A stretch of DNA of 64,000 nucleotides from Mariniblastus fucicola. Its GTDB lineage: Bacteria; Planctomycetota; Planctomycetia; Pirellulales; Pirellulaceae. The notes under the pieces are model-generated. The model saw only the letters and a program-made list of their open reading frames with translations. It was not told the DNA's origin and ran no database searches. The stretch spans positions 5,022,001 to 5,086,000 of the forward strand of contig NZ_CP042912.1 in the NCBI RefSeq assembly GCF_008087665.1, read 5' to 3'. The position numbers and the translations under genes were made by a program. How positions within the stretch are numbered: position 1 is the stretch's first letter; each line of letters starts with the position of its first letter. Shown piece by piece: positions 25,294 to 42,478 of the stretch.

Positions 25294-25441
25294 GCAACGC
25301 AAAAGGTGACGCCTCCGACATCCTGTTCTTTGCGACACCTCACAATTAAGCAGCTAGATCATTTCTCCGAGCGGAAAACGTGCGGCTCCAGGAATCCCGC
25401 GATGTCATGCTGTCGTAGTTCTCAACACATACGATTTGCCG

Positions 25442-26406
25442 CTATTCCTGGTCGAACTTGAGTCCCTTGATGCTTCGCAATATTGCTTTTCCTTCAGAGC
25501 CTTTCTTGTTCTCAAGGCACATGCCAGTGACCAGATAAAAACGGTCCTCGTTCGCAAACAGCCAAGTTGTCCCCCAGAGTTTGTCAGAACCAGCAGACTG
25601 AAAGTAAGATTTAAACCTTGCCTCCTGGCCGTCGATTTTCGCATTGCCTTCATCATCAGCACCGGCATTGGGCGAAATGGCCATTTTCTGCATCATCGCC
25701 CATGCCTTGTCGATATCGAATTCATCCTTGATGGCCATTGTCCGAACGAAAATGTAGGCACCACCTGGAGACTGAAGCCTCATCGAAGACGCGTCGCTGA
25801 CAACAAGTGCCATGTCGAGCGGAGGTGGCTCGATGGAAAAACCCAGCTGCCGAGCATCTATACGGCGGAACCTGTCCAACGCCGATTTGAATTCTTCTCC
25901 ATCCCTGTTTTTATTTGCAGTGTTGATCACCTTCGATAGCTCGGATGCGCGTTCGGGCGAATCACCAAAAGCCACAATGACCAACGACGTATCACCAAAT
26001 TTGAATCGCATATCCATGTGGAGTTTGACACCATTTTGAATTTCACCCGTGGCTCTGTAGATGAATTGATTCTTCCGTTTTCCATCTCGCTCCGGTCCAG
26101 ACATTCGAACGTTTTTCATCCCGTCCGCTTGCAGCCCTTCAACGATTCCATCGATAACGTCTTTCGAAAATGCATTTCGCTCGTCCTCGTCAGTGATTTC
26201 CCGCGCGCCAAGTATCAATTGAAGGAATTCCCCAGAGTCCGCATGGACGCATTCCGCGCTGACCATCGTCCCACCCGAGTTTGCCAAGCTCTCGATCTTG
26301 CTCCACGCAAATCCATCTTCAGGAATTCCAATCCGGAGCACACCGAGAACGTTGAACTTCGAGGCCTCCAGTTTCTCCGCTTCGAGTTTCGCCTGCTCTT
26401 CTTCAT
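25442..26406 (-). pseudogene. Hypothetical protein gene truncated at its 5' end by the IS21-type element
   Basis: The open frame runs from the stop at 25442 through a GTG at 26341. It continues in frame with good coding character (EEQAKLEAEKLEASKFNVLG) right up to the terminal inverted repeat of the insertion sequence at 26407, so the original start has been lost. At least 320 residues remain. The remaining protein is polar, with no membrane segment and no recognised domain. The other side of the element does not hold the missing 5' end. Confidence 0.65.
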
Positions 26407-26441
26407 TGTTAACGGCGGTCGAAAAGAGCGGCGCCCGGCGG
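26407..26441 (+). repeat. IS21-type left terminal inverted repeat
   Basis: Begins TGTTAACGGCGGTCG. Its partner is the reverse complement at 28954-28988. Confidence 0.9.
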
Positions 26442-26557
26442 ATTTGAGGGGCGTTCCAAAATGGCGGCGCGCCGAGACGTATTTCGTTGACTTTTGAGGC
26501 TATCGAACTTTAGTTCGATATCTTTACCGTCATCGGAGTGCCAGATTGCACGTAGAT

Positions 26558-28048
26558 ATGGAGTTTTGGACGGAAGTCCGCCGTCAGGTTCTTGTAGAAG
26601 GCCTGAGCAAACGCGGTGCTGTAAAGAAGTACAAGATTGGGTGGCACACCCTCGACAAGATTCTCTCTCTTGAAGAGCCGCCGGGCTACCAGCAGAAACA
26701 GGCTCGTCCCAAGCCGAAGATCGAAGCCTTCCTGCCAATCATCGCCGAGATCCTTACAGCCGATCAGAAAGCGCCTCGCAAGCAACGCCACTCGGCCAAG
26801 CGAATCTTTGAGCGTCTGCGCGACGAGCACGAATTCACTGGCGGCTACACGATCGTTAAAGACGCGGTTCGCGAGTGGAAGCATTCTCAGAAAGAAGTCT
26901 TTCTGCCACTAACTCATCGTCCCGGCGAAGCCCAGATGGATTGGGGCTTTGCGAAAGTTTCCATTCGTGGCCACACCGAACCAGTTAAAGTCGCGATCTT
27001 TGTGCTCACGCTGCCGTACAGCGGAGCGGTCTTCTGCCAAGTCTTTCATCGCGAATGCACTGAGTCATTTCAAGAGGGCCACGCCCGTGCGTTTGAATTC
27101 TTCGGTGGCGTGCCGTGGCGAATCTCGTACGACAACAGCAAGGTCGCGATCGCCAAGATTCTCGGGAGCCGAGATCGCAAGTTGACTCGCGAATTCCTGC
27201 GTCTACAAAGCCATTACCTGTTCGCCGAACACTTTTGTCTGGTGCGGCGTCCCAATGAAAAAGGCCACGTTGAGAGACTTGTTGAGTACGCACGTGGCAA
27301 CTTTCTGGTTCCTGTTCCAGTCGTCGATTCTCTCGAAGAACTCAATGAGAAGTTACTTGCTCAGTGCCACGCTGACCTTGAGAAGCAAAGCCGCGGCAAG
27401 TCAACCAACAAGCGTTTACTTCTGGAAGAAGAACGCAGTGCGTTTCTCGGTTTGCCGGCCCGTGCGTTTGAAGCTCGCCGCATCACACAGGCCGCCGTCA
27501 GCTCACAGTCGTTGGTTCGCTTCGATCGCAACTCGTATTCGGTTCCTACGAAGTACGCGCATCGCAAGGTGACCGTCGTGGCCGCGGTCGACGAAGTTCG
27601 ATTTGTGTTTGGCGACAGGCTCATCGCGAGGCACCGCCGCTGTTGGGAGAAGGAACAGTTCTTCTACCAACCGATCCATTATCTCCGCCTTTTAGAACGA
27701 AAGCCGGGTGGTTTGGACTTCGCCAAGCCCGTTGATCAATGGCAACTGCCGAAGTGCTTTGGGATTCTGCGCAGGCGACTCGAAGCATCCGACGAGAAGC
27801 ATGGAACACGATTCTACATCCGAGTCTTGAGACTACTGGAACGTCGCTCGCTTTCTCAATTGACCGATGCCGTTGAGTACGCGTTGGATATCGATGTGAT
27901 CGATCCCAGCAGCATTCGCGTCATCCTTGAGCACCGGCAAGAGAGACCGGCCGAGCTGTTCTCACTCGATGGCCGGCCTCAACTAAAAACGTTCAACGTC
28001 GAAACGACAGACGTTTCGGCTTACGCGGCGCTGCTGAGTGCTCGCTGA
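26558..28048 (+). CDS. istA: IS21-family transposase IstA
   Basis: About 496 residues from the ATG at 26558, with a TTG four codons earlier also open. An N-terminal helix-turn-helix region (SKRGAVKKYKIGWHTLDKIL) precedes an rve-type DDE integrase core beginning at GEAQMDWGFAKV. The core continues through WRISYDNSK and FCLVRRPNEKGHVE, which supply the three acidic catalytic residues. A beta-barrel-like C-terminal part follows. The gene appears intact and lies 48 bases before istB. Confidence 0.93.
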   Translation: MEFWTEVRRQVLVEGLSKRGAVKKYKIGWHTLDKILSLEEPPGYQQKQARPKPKIEAFLPIIAEILTADQKAPRKQRHSAKRIFERLRDEHEFTGGYTIVKDAVREWKHSQKEVFLPLTHRPGEAQMDWGFAKVSIRGHTEPVKVAIFVLTLPYSGAVFCQVFHRECTESFQEGHARAFEFFGGVPWRISYDNSKVAIAKILGSRDRKLTREFLRLQSHYLFAEHFCLVRRPNEKGHVERLVEYARGNFLVPVPVVDSLEELNEKLLAQCHADLEKQSRGKSTNKRLLLEEERSAFLGLPARAFEARRITQAAVSSQSLVRFDRNSYSVPTKYAHRKVTVVAAVDEVRFVFGDRLIARHRRCWEKEQFFYQPIHYLRLLERKPGGLDFAKPVDQWQLPKCFGILRRRLEASDEKHGTRFYIRVLRLLERRSLSQLTDAVEYALDIDVIDPSSIRVILEHRQERPAELFSLDGRPQLKTFNVETTDVSAYAALLSAR

Positions 28049-28096
28049 TGTCATGCCCACTAGATTACTTTTATAACCTTCAAGGAGTTACTTACG

Positions 28097-28891
28097 ATGA
28101 CCAATAAACGAGAAACCAAAGCCACCGTACTGGTAAAGCATCACCTCAAACAGCTGCGGCTGCCGACGATGGCCAGCGAGTGCGATTCGCTTGCTGAGCA
28201 AGCCGCCAGAGACAATCAGGATCACCTGGCTTATCTGCTGAAGTTAACCGAACGTGAACTGATCGAAAGGGAACGTAAGTCGGCCGAGCGACGACTCAAA
28301 GCGGCTCGCTTTCCGGCGCATAAAACGCTTGACCAATTCGACTTCTCCGCCCAGCCCACGGTCAACAAGCCGCTCGTTGCACAGCTTGCTGCCGGTGACT
28401 ATCTGGGTTCGCGGGAGAATATCCTGCTCGTTGGCCCCAGCGGAACCGGAAAATCTCACTTGGCGATTTCGCTGGCGATCAATGCGTGTTCCCAAGGCAA
28501 ACGCGTTCGTTTCTGGCGCGTGACGGAGCTGATCACTTGCTTGCTTGAGGCCAAAGAGGAACGACAGCTCTTGCGAATCCGAAATCAGCTCGCCAAACTG
28601 GACTTGCTGGTGCTCGACGAACTGGGCTACGTGCCGGCAAGCAAAGCTGGAGCCGAGCTGTTGTTCGACGTCATCGCAACGGCTTACGAGCGAAATAGCA
28701 TCATCGTGACGACCAATTTACCGTTTGAGAATTGGCCTGAAGTTCTTGGCAACCAACGGCTCACCGGAGCGGCCCTTGATCGCCTGACGCATCGCTGCCA
28801 CATCATCGAAACCAAAGGCGAAAGTTACCGACTCAAGGACGCAAAGCGACGATCTGGAAAGGCTCAAAAGGCCAAAAAGAAGACCGCTTAA
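28097..28891 (+). CDS. istB: IS21-family helper ATPase IstB
   Basis: A 264-residue DnaC-like AAA+ ATPase with Walker A LLVGPSGTGKSHLA near residue 115 and Walker B LLVLDELGY. Sensor segment SIIVTTNLPFENW and the usual Arg/Lys-rich C-terminus follow. IstB assembles on target DNA and stimulates IstA. A CAAGGAG ribosome site lies about ten bases before the ATG. Intact. Confidence 0.95.
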   Translation: MTNKRETKATVLVKHHLKQLRLPTMASECDSLAEQAARDNQDHLAYLLKLTERELIERERKSAERRLKAARFPAHKTLDQFDFSAQPTVNKPLVAQLAAGDYLGSRENILLVGPSGTGKSHLAISLAINACSQGKRVRFWRVTELITCLLEAKEERQLLRIRNQLAKLDLLVLDELGYVPASKAGAELLFDVIATAYERNSIIVTTNLPFENWPEVLGNQRLTGAALDRLTHRCHIIETKGESYRLKDAKRRSGKAQKAKKKTA

Positions 28892-28953
28892 TATCAACAA
28901 CACGGGCTGACACTACCCTCATCTTTTTTTACAACTAGCGCCGCCATTTTCGA

Positions 28954-28988
28954 CCGCCGGGCGCCGCCCTTTTCAACCGCCGTTAACA
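28954..28988 (-). repeat. IS21-type right terminal inverted repeat
   Basis: Reads TGTTAACGGCGGTTG on the minus strand. It abuts the truncated ISL3 transposase directly. Confidence 0.9.
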
Positions 28989-29754
28989 GCCATACATTGG
29001 AATTGACGAAAAGTCATTCAAGAAAGGCCAGAACTACATCACGTTGATCTACGATCTGGACAACAGCACCGTCGAAGCAATCTCCGAAGGCCACAATGAA
29101 GCCGCGGCCAATGAGTGTTTCTCCCAGCTTTTACCGGGTCAAATTGAAACAGTCGAAGCCATTGCGATGGATATGAGTTCAGCGTTTGTGAAGTCGGCGA
29201 AGTCCAACATTCCTTTGGCCGAAGAAAAGATTGTTCACGACCGTTTCCATGTCATGAAACTCGTCAACGAGGCAGTCGATAAGACTCGCAAGGAGGAGCA
29301 CAAGCGACTTCGAGCCGTAGGGGATGACACACTCAAAGGCACTCGTTACTTGTTTCTGAAGAACTACGACAACCTGAAAGAGTCGAAGCAGCAGGAGCTT
29401 GATTCGTTGTTCATTTCCAGGTTGGAAACGGGCAAAGCATGGACTTACAAGGAGATGCTTCGTGACCTTTGGCACCACGATACTGCAAGCGAGGCCACAG
29501 AGTTTTTCAACTGGTGGTATCGCAAAGTCATTCACACCAAACTTGAACCGCTGAAGAAGGTTGCCCGGACCATCAAAGAGCGACTTGCCAACGTGGTCAG
29601 CTATTGCACCTTTGGCGGAATATCAAACGGCGTTGCTGAAGGCATCAACAGCAAGATCCAATCGATCAAGAGACGAGTCGGTGGCTACAGAAACAGAGAA
29701 AACTACAAAACTGCCATCTTTTTTTACTGCGGCGGACTAGACCTAGACCCATAG
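28989..29754 (+). pseudogene. ISL3-family transposase, N-terminus lost
   Basis: The readable frame starts right at the IS21-type end with YIGIDEKSFKKGQNYITL, the beginning of the ISL3 DDE core, and continues to the stop at 29754. It includes VEAIAMDMSSAF and ISNGVAEGINSKIQSIKRR, which carry later catalytic residues. The zinc-finger and helix-turn-helix N-terminal part is missing, so the element cannot make a full transposase. It appears to have been cut by the IS21-type event. Confidence 0.9.
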
Positions 29755-29778
29755 AGATCCGCGATGGACCTTTCTTTG
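29747..29778 (+). repeat. ISL3-type right end, copy 1
   Basis: A 32-base sequence containing GATCCGCGATGGACC followed by TTTCTTTG. It overlaps the last codons of the ISL3 transposase remnant and matches 29914-29945 at 30 of 32 positions, in the same orientation. Confidence 0.75.
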
Positions 29779-29913
29779 GGGCCTTCGCGGTTTCTTGTGG
29801 GTCGTCAAACCTTGATCTTCCGGGGCCAAACTTAAGAAGCTTCAATTTCCCCGGGAAAAAGCAGTCCCAGCGAGCTGTCAGCAAACGCCCGTATTCTCCG
29901 GGAAAACCGAGCT

Positions 29914-29945
29914 ACCCACAAAGATCCGCGATGGACCTTTCTTTG
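29914..29945 (+). repeat. ISL3-type right end, copy 2
   Basis: The second copy of the repeat in direct orientation, 136 bases after copy 1. It sits exactly where the IS66 TnpA reading frame loses its similarity, so it marks an insertion junction. Confidence 0.75.
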
Positions 29946-30130
29946 CCAGTTGTAAAACGTGGCAACAGAGACTTCGATCAGTTCGCAGAACTGTTTAACC
30001 GAAAGCCCGCTTTGACGATATTCCTCAAGCCAGACTTGCCAATCAGCTCTCGTGTAACGTGTTGACATAATGATGCTCCAAAATCTGAAGCATACAATTC
30101 ACATCAACATGCACTTCGTCGGACGCTTAC
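29940..30130 (-). pseudogene. IS66 left-end remnant with truncated tnpA
   Basis: Read on the minus strand, the element end is GTAAGCGTCC (30130-30121), a typical IS66 terminus. An ATG at 30068 opens a frame giving MSTRYTRADWQVWLEEYRQ and the helix-turn-helix LSVKQFCELIEVSVATFYNW. Similarity stops after about 43 residues, at the ISL3-type repeat. Only this left end remains, as no tnpB or tnpC of the same element is nearby in the right order. Confidence 0.8.
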
Positions 30131-30339
30131 GCAATTCGAGCCACGTGACGTTTCGTTGCATTGGCCTTTAGGCCTCGTGAACACAGTCGGCAATTGAAGA
30201 ACAGAAACAGTTGACTTGACAGCGGATCAAGCTCGACCACTCTCACGATTTGACCTTGTATGGAAGATATCCCGTTGGTGAAATCAAATTTGGAGATTTA
30301 CAAAACATGTCAACGTGTGGTTCTACGAATGCTCACCTC

Positions 30340-31158
30340 TTAATAACCTGAGAGACCGGTACTGACAGACGTCACTTTTCCAGCTCGCAACGACACGACA
30401 CATGGAGCTTCGAAAAACCAGTCATAGTCGTCGGTCAGTTTGCAATACCGATAGCTATTGGCGGGGGTTTCAAGAGCGTCCAGTTCACTAACTGAAGAAC
30501 CTTCTATGAAAACTACTGGTATTGGATTGTGGTTTTCCAACACACCAGAAATCAGTTTTTTACAAGTTTCACAATCTTCGTAGTAGAAAACAAGCTCGCA
30601 ATCCTCATCAATTGGAAGCGTTGATGGACCACAATTCAGAAAGCGTAGTATTTCCGGCGCACTCCCAACCCAGCTATCGAACTCAACAACTACGCTATCG
30701 CTCCCTACAATTGTCCCTATTCCATCAAGTGGATTCGTCATGAATTTTGAGACAGGAAGGAATATAAACATGCAGGCGGCAACTCCAAAAATGAAGCCCA
30801 CGAGAGAATACTTGTTTTTGTAGTTGGGACGAATGCGCCAAAGAAGTATGCAGAATAGCAAGTCAACAACCAGCATAATTTCGGGGCTAGTGGAGAGATT
30901 ACCGAAACAGTTGCATAGTGGCACTCGCTTGACTATCAAAAGAAAAGAGTAACAACTAAAGAGCAAGAAAAGTAACGATGCAATTTTCGTCGACAATCCA
31001 ATTTTCCAACAGGACAAGACCCATAGCGCGAGCAATGCTTCTGTTAGCAGAAGCAATACTGTTTGTAACCAAGACATGTTAACTTGTGTCAGATTTCCGC
31101 TTTTGGAAAAAGCGGCAAATAACAGTACGCAAGCAGCAACTCTCGAAATCCAAATCAT
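30340..31158 (-). CDS. MauE-like membrane protein with thioredoxin-like C-terminal domain
   Basis: About 272 residues from the ATG at 31158, 19 bases after the previous stop. Earlier in-frame starts lie inside the upstream gene and would add a very basic leader. Four hydrophobic segments fill residues 1-105 in the MauE/DoxX pattern, with a Cys pair in LCNCFG as in MauE proteins, and a further membrane segment lies near 118-138. The C-terminal part has VFYYEDCETCKK (a CxxC site) and WFFEAPCVV, which fits the cis-Pro region of a thioredoxin fold. It probably moves electrons or makes disulfides outside the cytoplasm. Last gene of the cysteine-rich-protein operon. Confidence 0.7.
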   Translation of the reverse strand: MIWISRVAACVLLFAAFSKSGNLTQVNMSWLQTVLLLLTEALLALWVLSCWKIGLSTKIASLLFLLFSCYSFLLIVKRVPLCNCFGNLSTSPEIMLVVDLLFCILLWRIRPNYKNKYSLVGFIFGVAACMFIFLPVSKFMTNPLDGIGTIVGSDSVVVEFDSWVGSAPEILRFLNCGPSTLPIDEDCELVFYYEDCETCKKLISGVLENHNPIPVVFIEGSSVSELDALETPANSYRYCKLTDDYDWFFEAPCVVSLRAGKVTSVSTGLSGY

Positions 31159-31177
31159 CGTGTAATTCACCAATTGC

Positions 31178-32578
31178 CTACTGCTTGCGATTTCTCCCCG
31201 TCCGCCTTTTCGTCGTCTTTTCATTCGAAATAGAAAACATCGAAAAGTTGGGAACGGAATGTTGCATTCTTTCGCCAACCGACTTCCTAAATGCCTTTTT
31301 ATTCTTCACTGTCATCACTCCCTCAACAAGTTCGAATGACCTTTGCTCAAACTCCATCAATTCATCGACAAGCTCTTCACGAACCTTTTTGAATGCCAAG
31401 CGAAGTTTTTCTTTCTGGTCTTCGTCGATGCGGAATTTATCTGAAAGAGGATTCAAGACTAGACAGCCTGGCAAGCCGTACCTAACTGCCAATAGGTCAC
31501 CAACAACAAATTGCTCTACAATTACATGCCGATCTCCGCTCAAAAATTGATCGTAAAATTCGGAGATACGACGTTCGCGCGATTCAATTTTCGCTTTTAG
31601 ATTTCGCTTGGCTTCTTCTCGGTCAGAATTTCGTTCCAACGAATAAACTTCGGTCTCCCTCGCACGAGATTCAAAAAAAGCAGCGACTTCGTGCTCTATT
31701 TCTTCACGTTCCGAATCCGAAATATCCCAATCTATTTCTTGGAATGAGATTAATGCTTGAAGCACTGCGAGCTTCGCATTGGCGTTGCTGTGAAATGTCC
31801 GTTCAGCAGTCCATGTTCCGTTGCTATCTAGCCGAAACCATGGTGATGCAACAAACAGATCTAGATACCCTGATTCATTTTGTTCGCTATCCATGCTTGC
31901 GATCTCTAGTTGGCACATAAATGCGTCGACCGATCCATGAGGAACAGCTGTAGGAAACGACTTCTTGATACTCACAACCTGTTCCATTTCCAATATTTCT
32001 TCAAGTGAACTAAAGAATTTGGAATTGCAGATTTCAGCAGCCTCCGATGCGATAGTTTTAATTTTCTTCAGCTGACCTGCGATTTTGGAATTCTCAAGTT
32101 CGGACAGCTCCTGCTTTTCAAGAAATTGCAAGAAACCTCTACGTCTTATCTGCATACGGCAAGCCAATTCCCCAAGCCGCTCTAATTGATGCGGCAAAAG
32201 AATTCCGTGAAGTTTCTCTTTGTAGCCACGTTTCATTGATTCGTATTCAGAAAGATTTAGCTCCTTATTAAAAAACTTGCCTGTGATCAGGCGTTCATCT
32301 CTCTCCAGTTCGCGGAGGAGTGAATCTAAGTCGTTTTCTTGCTCGTCCGTTGTAACTAATTCCAGCCTAATATCCTCACCATTTAGCAGGGAAGAAGAAT
32401 GCAGCAACGGGAACTTGTTTTTGTAGCGTGGCTTTAATTCAGCACGATCTTTTTGCAAAATCAAAGCAAGATGATCTAGTTCTTTTTGAAGCACTAGCCG
32501 TTGTCGCTCTTGTTGAAAAAAGAACGCTATAATCAATGACAAAGCAGAAATGGCTAAGAATTTAATGAGTTTCACCAT
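31178..32578 (-). CDS. Membrane-anchored coiled-coil protein of unknown function
   Basis: A 466-residue protein with an N-terminal signal anchor (about residues 6-22). Long charged helical stretches rich in Glu, Lys, Arg and Leu follow, likely coiled coils near 25-50, 90-190 and 300-340. The C-terminus is strongly basic (TTKRRTGRNRKQ). It has only three cysteines. No domain is recognised. Its ATG overlaps the stop of the DUF1573-like gene by seven bases, so it is co-translated. AT-rich codon use like the rest of the operon suggests acquisition from elsewhere. Confidence 0.65.
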   Translation of the reverse strand: MVKLIKFLAISALSLIIAFFFQQERQRLVLQKELDHLALILQKDRAELKPRYKNKFPLLHSSSLLNGEDIRLELVTTDEQENDLDSLLRELERDERLITGKFFNKELNLSEYESMKRGYKEKLHGILLPHQLERLGELACRMQIRRRGFLQFLEKQELSELENSKIAGQLKKIKTIASEAAEICNSKFFSSLEEILEMEQVVSIKKSFPTAVPHGSVDAFMCQLEIASMDSEQNESGYLDLFVASPWFRLDSNGTWTAERTFHSNANAKLAVLQALISFQEIDWDISDSEREEIEHEVAAFFESRARETEVYSLERNSDREEAKRNLKAKIESRERRISEFYDQFLSGDRHVIVEQFVVGDLLAVRYGLPGCLVLNPLSDKFRIDEDQKEKLRLAFKKVREELVDELMEFEQRSFELVEGVMTVKNKKAFRKSVGERMQHSVPNFSMFSISNEKTTKRRTGRNRKQ

Positions 32579-33654
32579 TGCGCATATACCTCAACATCTA
32601 AATTAGTTTCTGATTCGTCGTCTACAACTAATTCAATTTGACATTTTTCAATTTGGGAATTAGCTTGATTTTTTTCGGTTTTAATGGCCATGAATTCAAC
32701 CGAAAACGTCTGAACAAGGCTGTCGGAAAGATTTTCCTCGCGTTCGATTCTCAAAAATTTGGCGTCGGAAGCTATCCGCTTCACTTTGAACGGTTTCGAA
32801 CCCACAATTCGAAACCGTCTTTTTGTGTTACCAAGTTTTGCACTTACAAAAAGGCGCTCTGGGTTTACTCGAAATGAACTTCGTGCTGCCGACAGCTCCA
32901 ATGGAATTTTCAAGGACTGCCCATCGAGATCTAAGACTAAAACCGTCTCAAAAGGCTCATCTCGTGAGAGCAGTTCGTCGGTTTTTCCACTTAACACCAA
33001 CGAGAGGTCCATGACTGGAATTCCACCGTAGCGAGCCTTCGACTGGGAATGAATATCAACCCTAAATCGCGGATCGGAACACTTACAGTCAACTTCATCG
33101 AAGTTCCCAAGAAGTAACAATCCCGGCAAGTCGACGTCCGTGGTTTGTTTCGAAACGCGAAAACTGTCGTTATGCAAATCAATCCAACAATAAGGTCGGA
33201 CGATTTTGCCCTTGAGTACTACAACGAAGTCAGACGCTCCATTGCCATTTATGGTTCTGCTGAACTTAAGATAGTGCTTGAATACCTGTACAGACTTTCC
33301 GTTGCTTTTGAACTCCAAATCAATGAAATTGACACTTCCAGCTTTAATCTTGATTTCATCAAGACCCTTTGCAACACAGCTACAGGATTTGCTTTTCAAA
33401 ATCAACTTAGCATCGTTTTGGTTGCTCGCCGCGAATGGGAGCTTAATTACAAATGGCTCTCCGAGTTGGGAAATTTCACGGACTAGCGAACCAATATCAA
33501 TTTCCACACTATCCGTCGAAACAACATCTATCTCTTGGGCGGTCACAACTGAATTTAGTTTCTCAAAATCTGGGCCGTATATTGATTGCCCTAAACCAGC
33601 CACTGAACAAAACCCAACAGCCACCAATAACAAAATCAGACTGACAACTCTCAT
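32572..33654 (-). CDS. Exported DUF1573-like protein
   Basis: A 360-residue protein with a signal peptide (residues 1-22). The segment LILKSKSCSCVAKGLDEIKI followed by a G-x-x-x-F-I-D-L-E-F strand matches the layout of DUF1573 Ig-like domains, where a Cys-x-Cys lies after the first strand pair. A second weaker beta domain with another Cys-x-Cys (VDCKCSDPRF) follows. Its start ATG overlaps the preceding stop as ATGA, the classic coupled arrangement. It is probably periplasmic and acts with the other operon products. Confidence 0.7.
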   Translation of the reverse strand: MRVVSLILLLVAVGFCSVAGLGQSIYGPDFEKLNSVVTAQEIDVVSTDSVEIDIGSLVREISQLGEPFVIKLPFAASNQNDAKLILKSKSCSCVAKGLDEIKIKAGSVNFIDLEFKSNGKSVQVFKHYLKFSRTINGNGASDFVVVLKGKIVRPYCWIDLHNDSFRVSKQTTDVDLPGLLLLGNFDEVDCKCSDPRFRVDIHSQSKARYGGIPVMDLSLVLSGKTDELLSRDEPFETVLVLDLDGQSLKIPLELSAARSSFRVNPERLFVSAKLGNTKRRFRIVGSKPFKVKRIASDAKFLRIEREENLSDSLVQTFSVEFMAIKTEKNQANSQIEKCQIELVVDDESETNLDVEVYAQW

Positions 33655-34116
33655 TTTTTCCTAAACAAAAAAACAGCAATAGAAATCAAAAATATCGCAA
33701 AAGCATACTTCCAGCATTTCGAATACGGGGAGTTTTCGGTCGAAGCAATCTCGACTAAAAACGTTTCAGTCGAATCGAAATTCTTTTCAACGATCGACGT
33801 TTCATCTTGCATAAGGCGATCTGAAATCTCTGCAACAGAGGTCGTACCGTTCGAAAGAACAGGTGCCAAGCCAGGCGCAACAATCTCGAAAGAAACTGGG
33901 ATGGAGAATTTTTCCATTGCTGGATTACTAGATGCCTCCCCAAACATTTCCCATTTTTGCAAGAGAACTTTATCGACTCCAAAACTTGTAAGGGAAATTA
34001 ACTTCCTCGGAAAGACTGTACCTAGGATCTCCTCAAAACCCTCAACCTTTGTAATCACTACAACGTTTGGGATATTGTTTTTCTCGCCAGAGTTCCATTG
34101 AGAATACGACTCCTTA

Positions 34117-34995
34117 GAAGGTGTTTTGAAACTGCTCTGAGTTGAAAAAATCGCTACAGCCCCGTTTGCATTTAAACCGTAAACGGAAGGAGCCGTAGCG
34201 ATGAGTATTGAGTATCCCAGCAGTCTCAGTGATGATCAATGGCGATTGCTTCGTCGTCTGATTCCGCCAGCAAAACTTCGCGGCCGCAAACGAATCGATC
34301 GGCGTCAAATTGTCGATGCGATATTGTATTGGTGTCGAACGGGCTGCCAGTGGCGGTTGCTTCCGGACTGCTTTCCGAATTGGAACACGGTTTATGGAGT
34401 TTATCGAGCTTGGCGTATTGATGGGACATGGCAACGCATTCACGATCGTCTTCGCGAAAAGGTACGCCGCAAAGAAGGCAGGAAGCCAACGCCAACAGCA
34501 GCCATCATTGATTCGCAAAGCATTCGCAGTGCTGAAGGAGGAGAATTACGCGGGTATGACGCGGCGAAACGAATTACCGGACGAAAGCGTCACATCCTGG
34601 TGGATACGTTGGGGCTTGTGATGGTCGTTGTTGTCCACTCGGCCGATCTACAAGACTACGAAGGTGCACATCTTGTTCTTGAAAACATCAGACAGAAGTT
34701 TCGTCGGCTTCGAGTCATCTTCGCGGACTCGATTTACGGGCGGGCTGATTTGCCGGAGTTCCTGAAGCAATGGTATCGTGTCATCTTGCAAACCGTTAAG
34801 CGTCCGGTCGAAGCCGAAGGGTTCGTTGTCTTACCCAAGCGATGGATCGTTGAACGGACTTTCGCATGGCTTGGAAAATTCAGAAGGCTCTCAAAGGACT
34901 ATGAAAGACTGACTCAAAACAGCGAAACTGTCATACGAATCGCAATGATTCAATTCATGCTAAACAGGCTGGAAAAATAATTTTAAAACACCCTC
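34117..34995 (+). mobile_element. IS5-family insertion sequence, copy 1 (879 bp)
   Basis: Terminal inverted repeats GAAGGTGTTTTGAAA (left) and, reverse-complemented, GAGGGTGTTTTAAAA (right). The target duplication is TTA on both sides (34114-34116 and 34996-34998), fitting the T-N-A duplications of the IS1031/IS427-type groups. It carries one transposase gene. It is nearly identical to copy 2 at 38229-39107, with about six base differences counted by eye. Confidence 0.92.
34201..34980 (+). CDS. IS5-family transposase (copy 1)
   Basis: A 259-residue DDE transposase with DUF4096-like N-terminus (LSDDQWRLLRRLIPP), first catalytic Asp in AIIDSQSIRS, second in VIFADSIYGR and the terminal Glu in KRWIVERTFAW. 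A GGAGCC ribosome site precedes the ATG. It appears intact. It differs from copy 2 at two residues (Glu versus Lys in VEAEGF, Asn versus Ser in LTQNSE). Confidence 0.95.
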   Translation: MSIEYPSSLSDDQWRLLRRLIPPAKLRGRKRIDRRQIVDAILYWCRTGCQWRLLPDCFPNWNTVYGVYRAWRIDGTWQRIHDRLREKVRRKEGRKPTPTAAIIDSQSIRSAEGGELRGYDAAKRITGRKRHILVDTLGLVMVVVVHSADLQDYEGAHLVLENIRQKFRRLRVIFADSIYGRADLPEFLKQWYRVILQTVKRPVEAEGFVVLPKRWIVERTFAWLGKFRRLSKDYERLTQNSETVIRIAMIQFMLNRLEK

Positions 34996-35955
34996 TTAGT
35001 CTTCAGCAGCAATCCACCAAAATTCGAAAATGCAATTTCCCGCATGACACGAGAATCATCATTCTGAACGTAATCAATTGCAATAATCAATTCATCACAG
35101 TCTTTTGTAAACTCAACCCCTACTTCGAAATCACGAAGCTTGGTTTCGAGCCCCTTTAAAGCATTGGATATTTCTCTTGCTGTATGTTCGCTCAGAAGAA
35201 ACCCGCCGACAGTCACACCGTTACTCCACCCTCCACAAAAACCTAAAGGGTTGGGAATTTGTGAGACTGGATTCTTTCTGCCAAAAGGTTTTGCACCAGA
35301 CAATTCAAACCAATCAACTTGGCGCGAAAGTGAGGCAACTCGGCGCTCGCCACTGCGTCCCTGTGATAAAACTTGACTTCGCGGTGTGAAATGAACACCA
35401 AAATTTTCGTCGGCAATGAACTCGAATGGCCTTTTGAACGAAATCTCTTTGCCTTCAAATTCGACAGACTCCCAATTCGCACTAAGCTTAAAAGCATCTT
35501 GAGCAACTAAAAGACTTCCGATACAGGAGGCGTGCACCGCCTCAAATTCCCCAGCTAGTCCGCCGTCAATTGATTCCGCTTTACCGATCTTGAGATTGTA
35601 TTCACAGGCAAAGTTAAGATCTGAAACCCAAGATTCTGATGATGATTCAATCGCATTGATAAGATCAAAGCTAATTTGACTTTCGGCTACTCTCAGCTGA
35701 ACAGTCTGACAAAGGATTAGGACCACTAAACCATAGCGGAAGTTAACTAAATTCATTCCGTATGTCCGTAAATAGAAAACTGTGAGCTATGAGTCAGGAC
35801 CGCCAGAGTGAGAATCCGGCGTAAGCATTGTGCAATCACCACGACACATTGGAAGAAAATGCCGTTCTGGCCCGCACACAGGCCAAAACGTTTGAAACGG
35901 CATTCATAGGCTTTTCAGAGACAAACACTCTGATTCTCGAAAGTGTCTGGGAGGT

Positions 35956-36411
35956 CTACAACGGTGGAGGTCCGCCTCCAGGACATCCATTTGGGTCAGT
36001 CGAGCAATCATTATCGACGTACACATCAAATTGCGTTGGATTAACGATTACGCCAGTGCAATTGAAACCACTGTAATAGTTGAAAGTGGCACAAACTTGG
36101 TCTGTGTCGTACTTGATACAATCGACTCCATTCGTGGTATTGTCGGAAATACAAGTTCGAACTGTTCCAGCTACAGTCTTGATAGACTTGTATTCAACAA
36201 GTACGCCTCCACCCGTATCAAAGTAAGTCGGAGGTTCGGTCGAATGAAATGAATCACAATCATCCCAACAACCGAAATCCGAATAGTCGTTTGAATCAAT
36301 TGTTCTGCATTCTGCGCAGACCAGAATTAAATCTGCAAACGATGTTGAGGCCAAGAACAGTGAACCTACCACCAATAGACAACATCTAATGCAATGCATT
36401 GAGTTTTGCAT
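35956..36411 (-). CDS. Exported cysteine-rich protein (10 Cys in the mature part)
   Basis: A 151-residue protein from the ATG at 36411, which has the ribosome site AGGTGAAGAG directly before it. The signal peptide ends at TSFA (about residue 26). The mature chain has ten cysteines, including VCAEC, GCWDDC and a later DNDC and NGC, with an Asp/Asn/Thr-rich body and a Gly/Pro-rich end (CPGGGPPPL). It looks like a disulfide-stabilised secreted protein. First gene of the operon and about 200 bases before the split anchored protein. No family recognised. Confidence 0.7.
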   Translation of the reverse strand: MQNSMHCIRCCLLVVGSLFLASTSFADLILVCAECRTIDSNDYSDFGCWDDCDSFHSTEPPTYFDTGGGVLVEYKSIKTVAGTVRTCISDNTTNGVDCIKYDTDQVCATFNYYSGFNCTGVIVNPTQFDVYVDNDCSTDPNGCPGGGPPPL

Positions 36412-36830
36412 CTCTTCACCTTTCAAAATGTAAATTGAATGTGTGACCAACCGATCTGCTGGGCCGACACAAGTCACATCCTACAGCTTCTTCAATCCAA
36501 TACAATCAAATTGTCATATTGAAACCGCTTGCAATAACATTATTTACGCTAGCCCAGCACTGGCGGACACAGGCGGAAAATTTTGAAAACCAGTTGAACT
36601 AGATGCTCGGCCCGACTCCTTGCGATCGATGTAAGCGGTCAAGAAAAAAACTTGCCGCTCCACTGTGCGTGTCCAACGATCGCACTGACTTGCCTCGCAC
36701 AATGAATGCAGAACGCCATGCACGAGCCATTTTAAAGACCGCTCGATTCATCGACATCTGAGATGAGAAGCTGAGAACAACTCTCGAAGCAAAGCAATTT
36801 TCGAGCGAGCATTCATCCTATTTGATTTTG
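36412..36830. other. AT-rich non-coding stretch upstream of the cysteine-rich operon
   Basis: This 419-base stretch lies between the first operon gene and the left end of the IS66 element. It should contain the operon promoter, but I cannot choose a convincing one. No gene is seen. Confidence 0.4.
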
Positions 36831-38228
36831 GTAACCATTCAGCGTTTTGAAATGCTCTTGGCGTGAGAGATCAGATTTCGTAATTGTAGCGGACCATGCC
36901 AACCGCCGCACAACCAACTATTGACACTGATTTTCTCAGCAAGTTTCTTTCAGGCCAAGCGACTCCAGATGAGATCTCTGGTTTGCTCCGAGGAGATCCC
37001 GAAGTAGCCGCTTTCACGCTGCTTGCGATTCAACAACAGCTCCCGCAACGCAACTCCGCTGGTCCCAATACGCCACCTGCGACGATTCCCGCTTACGCCA
37101 AGCCGGTCAATAAAAAGAAGAAACGCAAACGCGGAGCCCAACCAGGTCACAAAGGCTCGCGCCGACCGCCGCCCCCAGAACCCGATCGCACTCGACATCA
37201 GAAGCTCGACGACTGCCCCAGCTGCGGCGGTCAACTCAAAGACACCGGTGATACACGAACGCGACTCAGCGAAGACATCCCCGAAGACCTTAAGCCAATC
37301 GTCACCCAAGACATCATTCACCGCGACTGGTGCCCGAAGTGTAAAAAACGCTTCGAGCCCAAACCGCCGGATCTCTTGCCGCACTGTCAGCTCGGCAACC
37401 GCACGTTGGTGCTCTCGGCATTGCTGCACTATCTGCAAGGCCTGACGCTCAGCCAGATCGTTGACACGTTCAACTTTCACCTGCGGCTCAAAGTCACGCA
37501 TGGCGGTTTGGTTCAGATGTGGCACCGCTTGGCAAAGATACTTTACAGCTGGTACGAAGAGATTCACCACCAGAGTTTGGAGGGAAGCAAGCTTCACGCC
37601 GATGAAACGGGCTGGCGAGTCGAAGGACAGACTCACTGGCTGTGGTGTTTTACTTCCGATAGCACGGTTTACTTTATGGTCGATAAGTCTCGTGGCTCAC
37701 CGGCACTGCAGAAGTTTTTCACTCGCTATTTTGACGGCACGTTGATTACTGATTTCTGGTCACCGTACGATGCTGTCGATTGCGCTGACAAGCAGAAATG
37801 TTGGCCGCACCTACTGCGCGACATGTCGGCGGTGGACGAGAAGCATGCTGATGACAAGGAGTGGGCTTCGTTCTCGCGACGCGTTTCGAGCGTGTATCGT
37901 GACGCGAAAAAACTGCAGGCTGAGAGATCTTCGATGGCGGAGGCGGCTTACGATGAGTCCGTTGTTCGTCTCGAGGGCCGCTTGCACAAGGTGGCCACCG
38001 AGTCGTGGCAGCATGCCGACGCCAATCGTTTGGCAAAGCGGATGGCGAAGTACGGCAACGAGATGCTGACGTTTCTGTGGTACGACGATGTTGCTTCGGA
38101 CAACAACGCGGCCGAGCGAGCGATTCGTCCAGCGGTGATGATTCGCAAGAACAGTTATGCGAACCAGAGCGAGCAAGGTGCAACAACGATGGCGGTGATG
38201 ATGAGTGTCTTTCGAACGCTGAAGCTAA

Positions 38229-39107
38229 GAAGGTGTTTTGAAATTGCTCTGAGTTGAAAAAATCGCTACAGCCCCGTTTGCATTTAAACCGTAAACGGAA
38301 GGAGCCGTAGCGATGAGTATTGAGTATCCCAGCAGTCTCAGTGATGATCAATGGCGATTGCTTCGTCGTCTGATTCCGCCAGCAAAACTTCGCGGCCGCA
38401 AACGAATCGATCGGCGTCAAATTGTCGATGCGATATTGTATTGGTGTCGAACGGGCTGCCAGTGGCGGTTGCTTCCGGACTGCTTTCCGAATTGGAACAC
38501 GGTTTATGGAGTTTATCGAGCTTGGCGTATTGATGGGACATGGCAACGCATTCACGATCGTCTTCGCGAAAAGGTACGCCGCAAAGAAGGCAGGAAGCCA
38601 ACGCCAACAGCAGCCATCATTGATTCGCAAAGCATTCGCAGTGCTGAAGGAGGAGAATTACGCGGGTATGACGCGGCGAAACGAATTACCGGACGAAAGC
38701 GTCACATCCTGGTGGATACGTTGGGGCTTGTGATGGTCGTTGTTGTCCACTCGGCCGATTTACAAGACTACGAAGGTGCACATCTTGTTCTTGAAAACAT
38801 CAGACAGAAGTTTCGTCGGCTTCGAGTCATCTTCGCGGACTCGATTTACGGGCGGGCTGATTTGCCGGAGTTCCTGAAGCAATGGTATCGCGTCATCTTG
38901 CAAACCGTTAAGCGTCCGGTCGAAGCCAAAGGGTTCGTTGTCTTACCCAAGCGATGGATCGTTGAACGGACTTTCGCATGGCTTGGAAAATTCAGAAGGC
39001 TCTCAAAGGACTATGAAAGACTGACTCAAAGCAGCGAAACTGTCATACGAATCGCAATGATTCAATTCATGCTAAACAGGCTGGAAAAATAGTTTTAAAA
39101 CACCCTC
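38229..39107 (+). mobile_element. IS5-family insertion sequence, copy 2 (879 bp)
   Basis: Same length and termini as copy 1, with a TAA target duplication at 38226-38228 and 39108-39110. It sits inside tnpC of the IS66 element in the same orientation. The near-identity of the two copies indicates recent transposition. Confidence 0.93.
38313..39092 (+). CDS. IS5-family transposase (copy 2)
   Basis: A 259-residue DDE transposase, identical to copy 1 except for two residues (Lys in VEAKGF, Ser in LTQSSE). All catalytic residues are present, so it is probably functional. Confidence 0.95.
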   Translation: MSIEYPSSLSDDQWRLLRRLIPPAKLRGRKRIDRRQIVDAILYWCRTGCQWRLLPDCFPNWNTVYGVYRAWRIDGTWQRIHDRLREKVRRKEGRKPTPTAAIIDSQSIRSAEGGELRGYDAAKRITGRKRHILVDTLGLVMVVVVHSADLQDYEGAHLVLENIRQKFRRLRVIFADSIYGRADLPEFLKQWYRVILQTVKRPVEAKGFVVLPKRWIVERTFAWLGKFRRLSKDYERLTQSSETVIRIAMIQFMLNRLEK

Positions 39108-39256
39108 TAAGAAAAGTTCAGCCCATTGAAGCAATCCTCAACGCCCTAGCAGACTACAATCGAAACGGCGAATTGCCAAAACTGCCGAAAACCAATTCAG
39201 ATCCCTGAACGGTTACCTTTTTTCAAGAATCCTTGCTTTTGTCACAGGTGGTAGTA

Positions 39257-40785
39257 CTACAGCGCTAGGTTGAATCCCAGTAGCATCGTTTGATTTTGCT
39301 TACTTTGATGCCAATTCTCCGGAGTTTTTTGCGAGTTCTCTTGGCGTGTGATCGTGTTGCTTTTGCGTTTCGTTGTTGGTGGTACTGAATCGTAGCGGCA
39401 ACCCGGTCCAGTAGCGCCGACGATGCCCGCCCCTTAAGCCACCAAGTCTGGACCAGTGCCGATACGGCGTCGTGAACCTGATAGACGGTGAACCCTGATT
39501 TTTTTTCCCCCGAGCTTTTCTCGCATCTTCGTCAAGAACAGGTAGCTTACGCACGACAGAATCATGTGTCGTTTGAGCCCGAGATACTTCCGGCCCTCCC
39601 AGGCGTCGAGTCCAATGTCCTGCTTTTGATCCTGGAAGCAACGTTCGACATGCCAGCGGCTGAAGGCAACGAGCAACAACTTTTGAACGCTTGTTGCAGC
39701 CGGCGCGTTGCTGAGAAAGTACTTGATTTCATCCGGCTTGAGTGGGTTACGAGCCACCAACAAGTGCCAACGCTTGCTCGAAACACACTTGCCGTCAGGA
39801 CGATAGATCATCGCATGCTTGACTTCCCAGACCATGGGACCTTTATCTCCATCTTTGACGCGATAACGCTCCCATGACTGATTCGTGAACCGCGTGGATT
39901 CTTCCAGCAGTTTGCGAAACGGCTGAGCTTTGGGATTGTCTTTGGCAACTCGCGCACCTTTTTGCGGCCGACCACGACACGGATCTTTGGGAGGATGTTG
40001 GAGCCCGGGTTTCTTGATCCAGCCGGTCATTGAAACTGGAACCTCGCCGATGAATAACTGTGCTTTGGCATCAAGAGCTCGTAAAAACGGGCCTTTGGAG
40101 CCGTAGCCTTCGTCAAAGGTGATCCACTCAAACTCCAGACCGTTGGACAGCGCGCGATCGTAAAGCTCCAGTGCGATCTTCCACTTTGGCTGATACACCA
40201 TTTCGTCGGGGATCCCGGCAACGCGACAACGCTCGCGATCTTCAGACCAGCTCTCAGGAAGGAACAACTCACCATCAAGCAAGCAGTGAAAGTCATCCTG
40301 AGCAAAAGCAAGATGAACCGTCACCATGCAGTTATCGGTCTTGCCAACCTTGCCACACCACTGACGCTGAACGCCAGGCGTCTTGGTGCCTTTCTTGACA
40401 TCGCTCGTTTCGTCAAACACGCCGATGGCACGCTTGCTACCGCGCTCCGTTGCCACCATCTGTTGCAGACGATCTCGCACGGCGTCTTCATTCCATGCGT
40501 ATTGAGCAAGAAACTCCTGAAGCGTGCGAACGGGAACTCCGGCAGCCAGTGCAATGGGCTCAACACTCTTGCGAGCAAGGTTTGATAGCTGACCCTGAAC
40601 ATACGTTGGCATATGAGCACGGGTATCTTTTCGACTAAAACAATCGGAGAACCGATTCAGAAAACGTGTCAAAGCTGGTTTCATCTGACGAATCCAAGTA
40701 CCATCCATCAAAGCACCTCCTTGTGCATGAACGATATAGAATCCCAAATTTCAACTAATTCTCAAATATCAACCTAGCGCTGTAG
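39257..40785 (-). mobile_element. IS701-family insertion sequence (1529 bp)
   Basis: Perfect 17-base terminal inverted repeats starting CTACAGCGCTAGGTTGA at 39257 and on the opposite strand from 40785. The flanks carry TAGTA at 39252-39256 and 40786-40790, which I read as the target duplication. Removing the element restores GGTGGTAGTAGTTGG in the interrupted sequence. One transposase gene is on the minus strand. Confidence 0.88.
39434..40708 (-). CDS. IS701-family transposase
   Basis: About 424 residues from the ATG at 40708, chosen because AAGGAGGTG lies five bases before it. An open frame reaches 40747. DDE-type core with AIGVFDETSDVKKGTKTPGV (first Asp), WITFDEGYGSKGPFL (second) and SRWHVERCFQDQKQDIGLD (Glu), as in IS701/DUF772-like nucleases. 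It appears intact. Confidence 0.9.
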   Translation of the reverse strand: MDGTWIRQMKPALTRFLNRFSDCFSRKDTRAHMPTYVQGQLSNLARKSVEPIALAAGVPVRTLQEFLAQYAWNEDAVRDRLQQMVATERGSKRAIGVFDETSDVKKGTKTPGVQRQWCGKVGKTDNCMVTVHLAFAQDDFHCLLDGELFLPESWSEDRERCRVAGIPDEMVYQPKWKIALELYDRALSNGLEFEWITFDEGYGSKGPFLRALDAKAQLFIGEVPVSMTGWIKKPGLQHPPKDPCRGRPQKGARVAKDNPKAQPFRKLLEESTRFTNQSWERYRVKDGDKGPMVWEVKHAMIYRPDGKCVSSKRWHLLVARNPLKPDEIKYFLSNAPAATSVQKLLLVAFSRWHVERCFQDQKQDIGLDAWEGRKYLGLKRHMILSCVSYLFLTKMREKLGGKKIRVHRLSGSRRRIGTGPDLVA

Positions 40786-40790
40786 TAGTA

Positions 40791-41255
40791 GTTGGGGGTG
40801 TTGATGAAGATGGCGAAGTCAGTGCGCTCTGTATAGTACTTGAAAAGAAACGGTGTGATGAAACTTGGACAGCGCCTACGACAAATACTTGTGGGGATTG
40901 TTTGCCCGATGGAGACGGTGGCTTTAGTTGCGGTCTATCTCAGGACAGAATGATGGAAGATGACAAGTATGAGTATTTCACATCAGCACATCTTTCCGAC
41001 GACGACGGTCCTCCAGTAGGTTATCGGGATGTGTTCGCGGAAACATACAACTGCCTTTTAATCGAATCATGTACATGCAAGGCAACTTTTGAAGGTAGCG
41101 GAATTTACATTTGTGAAATCAATCCTGACCCGGATGACGAAGATGATGTGTCCAGCTACAACCATGGTGGGGTTGAGTGCAGCATCGGCGAGGAAGTTCC
41201 GTCTGATATCGAAGAGATATCACCGGCTTGGGGACCTGGAACTTTTGCTCCGTAG
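40791..41255 (+). pseudogene. Second cysteine-rich protein gene, 5' end lost to insertions
   Basis: The frame reads in from the IS701-type right flank as VGGVDEDGEVSALC and continues to the stop at 41255, about 155 residues with ten cysteines (including NTCGDC and ESCTC). Across the IS701 site it joins in frame to 39218-39256 (FFQESLLLSQVVVV), but then meets the IS66 end, so no start or signal peptide remains. Acidic, Asp/Glu-rich C-terminus. An internal ATG at 40902 exists but would drop four of the cysteines. It parallels the 10-Cys protein at 35956-36411. Confidence 0.6.
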
Positions 41256-41280
41256 GTCGGGCGTCTGAAGGGAGAATAAA

Positions 41281-42357: not shown

Positions 42358-42478
42358 GGATTCGAATCCCAAGACTTGAAGCAAATAGAATAGGTGTCAG
42401 TGATCCACTTGTTGTACGGCCGGAACGCCAAGACTGCTCTGCGATCAACAGTTCAGCAATCGCATTGCATTCACGCAA

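What the first reader, a model, noticed from the sequence alone, without database searches (positions are those of the whole stretch)
30340..36411. Candidate new system: secreted 10-Cys protein, anchored partner, DUF1573, coiled-coil anchor and MauE-thioredoxin operon
Five minus-strand genes run in one direction, and the last four are coupled by overlaps or a 19-base gap. All five products are exported or membrane-bound. The first is a small secreted protein with ten cysteines, and the last is a MauE-like membrane protein with a CxxC thioredoxin-like tail. The logical reading is a dedicated disulfide or redox machine serving the cysteine-rich product, with two anchored proteins and a DUF1573 protein for display or assembly. 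AT-rich composition and flanking insertion sequences suggest horizontal origin. I know of no named system with this set.
Basis: partly seen in the sequence, partly recalled or inferred. Interest (0 to 1): 0.8.

Follow-up and report, generated by a model that had tools for sequence, protein, structure and literature searches.

The report
Planctomycete disulfide-maturation cassette for Cys-rich proteins
This operon is one copy, damaged by a jumping gene, of a recurrent and apparently undescribed planctomycete gene set that seems built to fold and finish small, exported, disulfide-rich proteins in the cell envelope.

Summary
The operon lies in an AT-rich, IS-laden island; in six of 20 congeners its flanking genes are nearly adjacent.

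The set recurs. A same-family genome has five matching genes, intact and adjacent. The MauE profile matches in 72 of 396 genomes of the order (tails not checked there). Of 76 such loci, 42 have a Cys-rich exported protein (1 of 80 control strands), 53 a partner-like anchored protein (8 of 80), 54 DUF1573, fused or separate (0 of 80). MauE also occurs fused to DUF1573, C39 peptidase and the partner.

Best reading: an envelope maturation station forming disulfides in hypervariable Cys-rich exported proteins, with C39 cutting a GG-type leader in some loci (not here). Nearest in print: methylamine dehydrogenase maturation and three Streptomyces MauE/Cys-rich RiPP candidates. No description of the set was found. 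The product's role is unknown.

The parts
35956..36411 (-). Cys-rich exported protein, 151 aa, 10 Cys after the predicted Sec signal peptide; no GG-type leader seen; likely substrate/product of the cassette
   Evidence: no Pfam match at E<=0.1; best PDB sequence match E 0.13
35863..35890 (-). terminator-like hairpin between the Cys-rich gene and the next gene (12 pairs, T-rich tail); possible attenuator
   Evidence: 9 terminator-like sites found, 7.4 expected, so weak; folding of the spacer z -2.16, 4 of 200 shuffles as good
34983..35756 (-). 5' half of the split partner gene (signal peptide + exported domain); the last codons of this ORF lie in the IS element
   Evidence: blastp E 2.5e-5 over 41 residues to the partner gene of L126, in a 7-protein database
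34117..34995 (.). IS5-family element (transposase 34201-34980, + strand), TTA target duplication, inserted in the partner gene
   Evidence: (NF033580 223 bits)
33651..34116 (-).
32572..33654 (-). DUF1573-like exported protein, 360 aa, CSC motif
   Evidence: PF07610 E 0.0075, below cut-off; weak blastp match to the DUF1573 protein of L126 (E 7.5e-4 in a 7-protein database)
31178..32578 (-). coiled-coil protein with N-terminal TM, 466 aa; lineage-specific accessory
   Evidence: relative directly beside MauE in L126, phmmer E 1e-6
30340..31158 (-). MauE-like membrane protein (CNCFG motif) with thioredoxin-like CxxC tail
25294..42478 (.). AT-rich, IS-laden island that contains the operon; its two flanking genes lie 0.06-3.9 kb apart in six of 20 congeners

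Best explanation
The operon is a horizontally acquired and now damaged copy of a planctomycete cassette that matures small disulfide-rich exported proteins. Proposed working: (1) the Cys-rich protein is exported by Sec. In other loci the precursor has an N-terminal hydrophobic helix followed by a GG-type leader, which an envelope C39 peptidase cuts (inferred from motif and co-occurrence; not the case in this window). (2) The MauE-like membrane protein carries a CxC motif by its membrane helices and a thioredoxin-like CxxC tail, taken to be on the export side; the tail exchanges disulfides with the product and passes electrons through MauE into the membrane (inferred). (3) DUF1573, an Ig-like domain with a CxC motif, works with or in place of that tail, as isomerase or docking domain (the replacement is shown by fusions; the chemistry is inferred). 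(4) The anchored partner, of LolA/LolB-like fold in relatives, holds or carries the product (inferred). (5) The coiled-coil protein is a local accessory. Shown: gene content, conservation, fusions, folds by model, and the IS disruption.
For: Context against controls, 76 MauE loci v 80 control strands: Cys-rich 42 v 1; partner-like 53 v 8; Cys-rich directly followed by partner-like 30 v 0; DUF1573 54 v 0 (41 of the 76 have one not fused to MauE); C39 13 v 0. By genome: 35, 43, 24, 41 and 11 of 57. Matching five-gene set in L126. Fusions: MauE-Trx; MauE-DUF1573; MauE-C39 (L125: PF03412 7.9e-14, MauE by my profile 7.9e-42); C39-DUF1573 (L134: PF03412 2.3e-15, PF07610 3.2e-20); MauE-partner (L178: partner profile E 1.3e-6 along nearly its whole length). 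MauE with a DUF1573 tail seldom has a separate DUF1573 neighbour (2/15 v 35/52 for CxxC tails). Tail of the window protein: CxxC before a helix and a nearly invariant cis-Pro position, Trx-like model. CxC in 59 of 70 DUF1573 domains. Cys number even in 30 of 45 Cys-rich proteins, p 0.036. GG-type leader in 6/9 loci with C39 v 3/33 without, p 0.001. Partner fold in L164: the 13 PDB matches at E<=0.001 are LolA, LolB or VioE.
Against: No biochemistry: nothing shows that disulfides are formed rather than reduced or shuffled. Window proteins score below the Pfam cut-offs, and so do both halves of the MauE-DUF1573 fusion L081 (21.7 and 18.5 bits). 34 of 76 MauE loci have no Cys-rich neighbour by my rule, through contig ends, my ORF picker or real absence; 10 of 76 have none of Cys-rich, partner-like and DUF1573. 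Invariance of CxxC in A1 and of CxC and CxxC in A3 is partly by choice of rows; unselected, CxCFG is in 22 of 30 and a CxxC tail in 52 of 76. Foldseek E-values for the tail are weak (best 0.03), partner TM-scores low (<=0.46). The partners of the window and of L126 match none of the partner-family profiles, so the LolA-like fold is not shown for them; their link to each other is 41 residues. Leader pattern and gene rules were written after seeing sequences. The host also has two VKOR-like proteins.
Confidence: 0.66

Rival explanations
1. The cassette makes a secreted antibacterial or signalling polypeptide (bacteriocin/RiPP-like): the hypervariable Cys-rich protein is the active agent, C39 or signal peptidase releases it, and the partner or coiled-coil protein gives self-protection. 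This specifies the product's role and is compatible with the best explanation.
For: GG-type leaders with C39; the leader region of one precursor (L134) weakly matches a bacteriocin-like peptide model (E 0.03, 14.3 bits, cut-off 40) and the C39 protein of that locus matches bacteriocin export peptidases far below cut-off; sequence diversity of the products; patchy, often multi-copy distribution and island location here; Streptomyces MauE/Cys-rich RiPP candidates.
Against: No ABC transporter part in the three C39 proteins scanned; precursors are long for bacteriocins (67-214 aa in the list, which holds a few false entries); the partner has a LolA-like fold in a relative, not a known immunity fold; the window copy has no leader and no C39.
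Confidence: 0.35
2. The Cys-rich protein is a structural cell-envelope or matrix protein, disulfide-bonded into the wall or a surface fibre, and the anchored partner and DUF1573 hold it at the surface.
For: Cys-rich wall proteins with YTV domains are known in planctomycetes (passages of PMC8567305); a prepilin-like gene is nearby in 13/76 loci v 2/80; the C39 domain of L134 also matches the FapD model far below cut-off (25.5 bits, cut-off 330).
Against: No Pfam domain (YTV or other) in 10 of 10 Cys-rich proteins tested; patchy, with 10 congeners listed without the MauE gene, unlike a main wall component.
Confidence: 0.3
3. MauE/Trx/DUF1573 here is general envelope redox housekeeping and the Cys-rich neighbour is incidental.
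For: 34 of 76 loci lack a detected Cys-rich gene; such domains occur in many contexts (recalled).
Against: Cys-rich then partner-like adjacency 30/76 v 0/80 and domain fusions; one MauE of this kind in the genome, in the operon of the Cys-rich gene; 10 listed congeners lack it and one (G134) has only a partial match.
Confidence: 0.1
4. A methylamine-dehydrogenase-type (mau) maturation operon.
For: MauE resemblance (below cut-off) and a Cys-rich small product.
Against: No methylamine dehydrogenase light chain over the Pfam cut-off in any of 146 genomes of the order, own genome included; one (G279) has a sub-cut-off match with an internal stop. The heavy chain was not searched for.
Confidence: 0.02

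Closest known systems
Methylamine dehydrogenase maturation (MauE + MauD)
   Same: MauE, speculated to help form disulfides of the beta subunit (so stated in PMC7794033, passages read); that MauD is thioredoxin-like and the subunit has six disulfides is recalled
   Different: Here MauE and a thioredoxin-like domain are one protein; no MADH light chain over cut-off; DUF1573, C39 and an anchored partner are added; the product is hypervariable
MauE-containing candidate RiPP families of Streptomyces (decRiPPter, PMC7794033)
   Same: three candidate families with MauE homologues (one also with MauD) and precursors with at least 8 cysteines (passages read)
   Different: Actinobacteria; in the passages read no DUF1573, C39 or anchored partner is named; function untested there too
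BT_3928 family (NF045576)
   Same: the MauE part of a cassette relative (L134) matches this model weakly (E 0.0013, 17.9 bits, cut-off 250)
   Different: far below cut-off; not a member
DUF1573 (PF07610) and the OS_HP2 (seleno)protein model (NF041425)
   Same: CxC-bearing domain; DUF1573 is tabulated as a selenoprotein family with a UGC motif (table rows of PMC9312934 and PMC13188914), which suggests a redox site; L134 and L136 pass PF07610, L134 and L126 match NF041425 below its cut-off (46.4 and 22.8 bits, cut-off 100)
   Different: no earlier link to MauE or Cys-rich products found; the window protein is below the Pfam cut-off
FapD and other C39 peptidases
   Same: a C39 domain without an ABC part (for FapD recalled; papers seen only as a search listing; NF058616 25.5 bits, cut-off 330)
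   Different: fused to DUF1573 or MauE; absent from the window copy
YTV-domain Cys-rich cell-wall proteins of planctomycetes
   Same: Cys-rich planctomycete envelope proteins (PMC8567305, passages)
   Different: no YTV or other Pfam domain in 10 of 10 products tested

Membership tests
MauE (PF07291) | Pfam gathering score of 27 bits | tested here: not met
   window 15.3 bits; relative L164 passes with 34.0 bits
MauE (PF07291) | bundle of membrane helices with a CxC motif (the motif as a family mark is recalled) | tested here: met
   window has CNCFG; CxCFG in 22 of 30 family members before selection; helices 2-23, 33-52, 56-79, 95-111, 122-143 in the model
thioredoxin-like domain | CxxC at the start of a helix plus cis-Pro position | tested here: met
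   window C199/C202 just before and at the start of helix 200-211; P255 and W166 conserved in at least 90% of 27 sequences, not selected for; CxxC itself was a criterion for the rows
thioredoxin-like domain | fold match to solved thioredoxins | tested here: inconclusive
   most of the top 50 PDB matches are thioredoxins or relatives, probability up to 1.0, but best E 0.03 and none at E<=0.001
DUF1573 (PF07610) | Pfam gathering score of 26.1 bits | tested here: not met
   window 16.7 bits; L134 72.4 and L136 30.1 bits
methylamine dehydrogenase (mau) operon | MADH light chain (PF02975) present | tested here: not met
   0 of 146 genomes of the order over cut-off, own genome none
double-glycine (C39) peptide system | GG-type leader on the precursor and a C39 peptidase | tested here: not met
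   no leader seen in the window's Cys-rich protein and no C39 match in the operon's proteins; 6 of 42 relatives' loci with a Cys-rich protein have both
LolA/LolB superfamily | LolA-type fold of the anchored partner | tested here: inconclusive
   relative L164: the 13 PDB matches at E<=0.001 are LolA/LolB/VioE, TM<=0.46; the window partner is split, was not folded, and matches no partner-family profile
MauE-linked Cys-rich RiPP candidates (decRiPPter) | MauE homologue beside a precursor with >=8 Cys | tested here: met
   10 Cys after the signal peptide, MauE-like in the same operon; homology to the Streptomyces clusters not tested
YTV cell-wall proteins | YTV domain | tested here: not met
   no Pfam match at E<=0.1 in 10 of 10 Cys-rich proteins, window included
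IS5 family | IS5 transposase model, inverted ends, short target duplication | tested here: met
   NF033580 223 bits against 110; ends inverted by inspection, TTA duplication, second copy identical at 859 of 864 bases compared

The most novel reading that the evidence does not exclude
Planctomycetota carry a private, modular envelope station in which one membrane oxidoreductase (MauE) takes interchangeable tails (thioredoxin, a CxC-type DUF1573 oxidoreductase, a C39 leader peptidase, or the LolA-like carrier itself) to turn a fast-evolving repertoire of Cys-rich precursors into disulfide-rich secreted effectors. DUF1573 would then be a new type of thiol-disulfide enzyme and the products a new class of disulfide-rich ribosomal peptides/proteins.
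Probability: 0.33. Interest if true: 0.87.

Novelty: new variant of a known kind. Interest (0 to 1): 0.72.

Why it matters
It assigns a testable task to several orphan parts at once (MauE-thioredoxin fusions, DUF1573, C39-DUF1573 fusions, anchored LolA-like proteins) and points to a large, unexplored pool of disulfide-rich exported proteins in a phylum known for unusual cell envelopes. The fusions make the MauE-DUF1573-C39 link directly testable: express one cassette and map the disulfides of its product. It also bears on the open question of what DUF1573 does.

Tried and rejected
Rejected: five intact genes as listed (one is split by IS5). Rejected: mau operon. Rejected as a core part: the coiled-coil protein; matches were found in 13 of 297 genomes (own included), most of them weak, and among the ORFs compared only L126 shows it beside MauE (the other three hits, L074, L090 and L091, were fetched for that protein). 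No use: PF07610 search of the own genome (three other DUF1573 places, not the window gene); the DUF1573-like protein in 149 family genomes (one general DUF1573 protein besides the window's); single-protein scan of genome contigs (36 stretches, none a relative); plasmid search with the DUF1573-like protein (no match); PDB sequence search with the Cys-rich protein (best E 0.13). My own DUF1573 profile did not reach the window protein at 1e-3. The window's read-through partner matches three partner clusters hardly at all (hhalign 14%, 0.3%, 0.1%), and neither it nor the L126 partner matches any of four cluster profiles at E<=10. Of the four largest partner clusters, 0-1 (96.9%) and 0-3 (98.5%) link, 1-3 is weak (26.6%), and cluster 2 links to none.

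Rows dropped before counts: of 80 loci fetched (L054-L133), L074, L090 and L091 were fetched for the coiled-coil protein; L096 gave no MauE ORF in my ORF picker; 76 were counted, from 57 genomes. Controls: 40 regions from 21 of those genomes, chosen on long contigs, both strands, 80 rows; the two strands of a region are not independent, nor are several loci of one genome. Rows of A1 were chosen to have a CxxC tail, rows of A3 to have CxCFG and CxxC.

Full report
What is in the window. The window lies at 5022001-5086000 of a 6.57-Mb single-contig genome. Its order is Pirellulales by inference: two 'same order' genomes (G510, G519) carry proteins identical to those of named Pirellulales and Thermoguttaceae records. 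On the minus strand stand, in order: an exported Cys-rich protein (35956-36411), a gene split by an insertion sequence, a DUF1573-like protein (32572-33654), a coiled-coil protein (31178-32578) and a MauE-like protein with a CxxC tail (30340-31158).

The insertion. Comparison with a second copy at about 38229-39107 (859 of 864 bases identical in the compared block) and inspection of the ends give 34117-34995 with TTA on both sides. The open frames on either side, 34983-35756 and 33651-34058, become one 407-aa frame when the element is left out: one exported protein with a C-terminal membrane helix. So the cassette in this genome is damaged; whether the genes downstream are still expressed is unknown.

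Island. GC falls to 42-47% over about 29-37 kb against 49-57% elsewhere in the window. The DUF547-like gene on the left and the thiamine-phosphate-synthase-like gene on the right (names recalled from sequence) lie 17.2 kb apart here but only 0.06 to 3.9 kb apart, on one contig and in the same orientation, in six of 20 congeners examined (G134, G639, G668, G669, G671, G676). In the other 14 one gene had no match at 1e-20, or the best matches lie on different contigs. The operon therefore probably arrived with, or among, mobile elements. One MauE-like gene of this kind was found in the genome.

Conservation. With the window's MauE-like protein alone, 46 of 297 genomes of the class match at E<=0.01 (own included). 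With an alignment of 14 (A1), 72 of 396 genomes of the order match at 1e-10 (own included), many with several matches, some of them partial and with tails not checked. A scan of a collection of 84,980 species gave 49 loci, 48 of them from planctomycete records (among them Pirellulales, Thermoguttaceae, Gemmataceae, Phycisphaerae and Sedimentisphaerales) and one from a 4.2-kb contig labelled Bacteroidales, possibly mis-binned. The search patterns came from planctomycete sequences, so absence elsewhere is not shown.

Neighbourhoods. I fetched 80 loci and 40 control regions from 21 of the same genomes. With one set of rules for both, 76 MauE loci against 80 control strands gave: Cys-rich exported protein 42 v 1; anchored protein of 290-480 aa with a C-terminal TM ('partner-like') 53 v 8; Cys-rich directly followed by partner-like 30 v 0; DUF1573 54 v 0; C39 13 v 0. 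Of the 54, 41 have a DUF1573 not fused to MauE; by genome the counts are 35, 43, 24, 41 and 11 of 57. 32 of 76 have Cys-rich, partner-like and DUF1573 together, and 10 of 76 have none of the three. The rules were set after a first look, which may inflate the numbers but cannot explain 54 v 0.

The closest gene set. A same-family genome (L126) has Cys-rich (13 Cys in all), partner, DUF1573, MauE and coiled-coil genes, intact and adjacent, the last two in the opposite order to the window. The coiled coil matches at 1e-6 among all ORFs held, MauE at 3.4e-35 by profile and DUF1573 at 3.4e-12 by profile. Direct blastp against only the seven ORFs of that locus gives 7e-5 (MauE), 7e-4 (DUF1573) and 2.5e-5 over 41 residues (5' half of the partner), and nothing significant for the Cys-rich protein (0.28). 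Neither partner matches the profiles of the main partner family, so for these two the partner is the same by position and architecture, not by shown homology to that family.

Fusions. Of the 76 loci, the best MauE has a CxxC tail in 52, a DUF1573 tail in 15, a C39 tail in 1 and another tail in 8. The C39 fusion (L125) passes Pfam (PF03412 7.9e-14). The DUF1573 fusion L081 is below both Pfam cut-offs but clear by my profiles. In L178 MauE is fused to a partner domain (partner profile E 1.3e-6 along positions 31-375). C39 and DUF1573 are fused in others (L134: 2.3e-15 and 3.2e-20). MauE with a DUF1573 tail has a separate DUF1573 neighbour in 2 of 15 loci, MauE with CxxC in 35 of 52. These swaps argue that the domains act on one process at one place.

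Chemistry. The model of the window MauE protein (mean pLDDT 82) has five membrane helices and a thioredoxin-like tail with the CxxC at the start of a helix; its PDB matches are mostly thioredoxins but with weak E-values (0.03 at best). The cis-Pro position and a tryptophan are conserved in at least 90% of rows; the cysteine motifs were partly criteria for choosing rows. DUF1573 domains keep CxC in 59 of 70 proteins, and two reviews tabulate selenoprotein forms with UGC (table rows). Cys numbers are even in 30 of 45 products. In loci with C39, 6 of 9 have a GG-type leader after the hydrophobic N-terminus; in loci without it, 3 of 33 (p 0.001; pattern written after seeing the sequences). The partner of L164 folds like LolA/LolB/VioE (the 13 matches at E<=0.001; pLDDT 71, TM up to 0.46).

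Reading. The simplest account is an envelope station that oxidises, and perhaps proof-reads, disulfides in a dedicated and very variable exported protein. The direction (oxidation), the electron route and the partner's job are inferred. The host also has two VKOR-like proteins, so this would be a private addition to a general pathway. What the product does (antibacterial, signalling or envelope) cannot be decided from sequence.

Literature. Searches for MauE with DUF1573 and planctomycetes, DUF1573 (three papers), MauE with MauD and disulfide (one), planctomycete bacteriocin/RiPP/C39 combinations, BT_3928/MauE/thioredoxin (10 of 273 listed) and planctomycete Cys-rich/LolA/prepilin showed no description of this set in the open-access library; most subscription papers are not covered. 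The closest is the decRiPPter study (PMC7794033, passages read): three Streptomyces candidate RiPP families with MauE and precursors of at least 8 cysteines.

Noticed in passing
window 38229-39107: Second, nearly identical copy of the IS5-family element, 4.1 kb from the first, just after an IS66-like transposase gene (label recalled).
   Followed up: partly
L081 from 7794 on, and L072 from 2078 on: The same three-gene module (MauE-DUF1573, Cys-rich protein, anchored partner), with the same gene lengths, stands twice in tandem near a contig end and again near the start of another contig of the same genome: a possible tandem array.
   Followed up: partly
L116 8966-10447 and L117: DUF1573 proteins whose N-terminal region looks by eye like a degenerate C39 domain, in loci whose Cys-rich protein shows no GG-type leader.
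   Followed up: no
L143: A 4.2-kb contig labelled Bacteroidales carries MauE and a partner-like gene: mis-binned planctomycete DNA or transfer to another phylum.
   Followed up: no
MauE loci: Prepilin-like (13/76 v 2/80), GT2-type glycosyltransferase (6/76 v 0/80) and mannosyltransferase-like (8/76 v 1/80) genes, by simple patterns, recur beside the cassette, hinting at a pilus link or glycosylation.
   Followed up: partly
MauE matches: Several MauE-like genes in other genomes carry internal stops or are split into two frames, as if the cassette often decays; assembly errors not excluded.
   Followed up: no
window 26546-28891 and 39434-40747: Further transposase-like genes (an IS21-type pair and an IS4/IS701-type gene, labels recalled) in the same island.
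   Followed up: no
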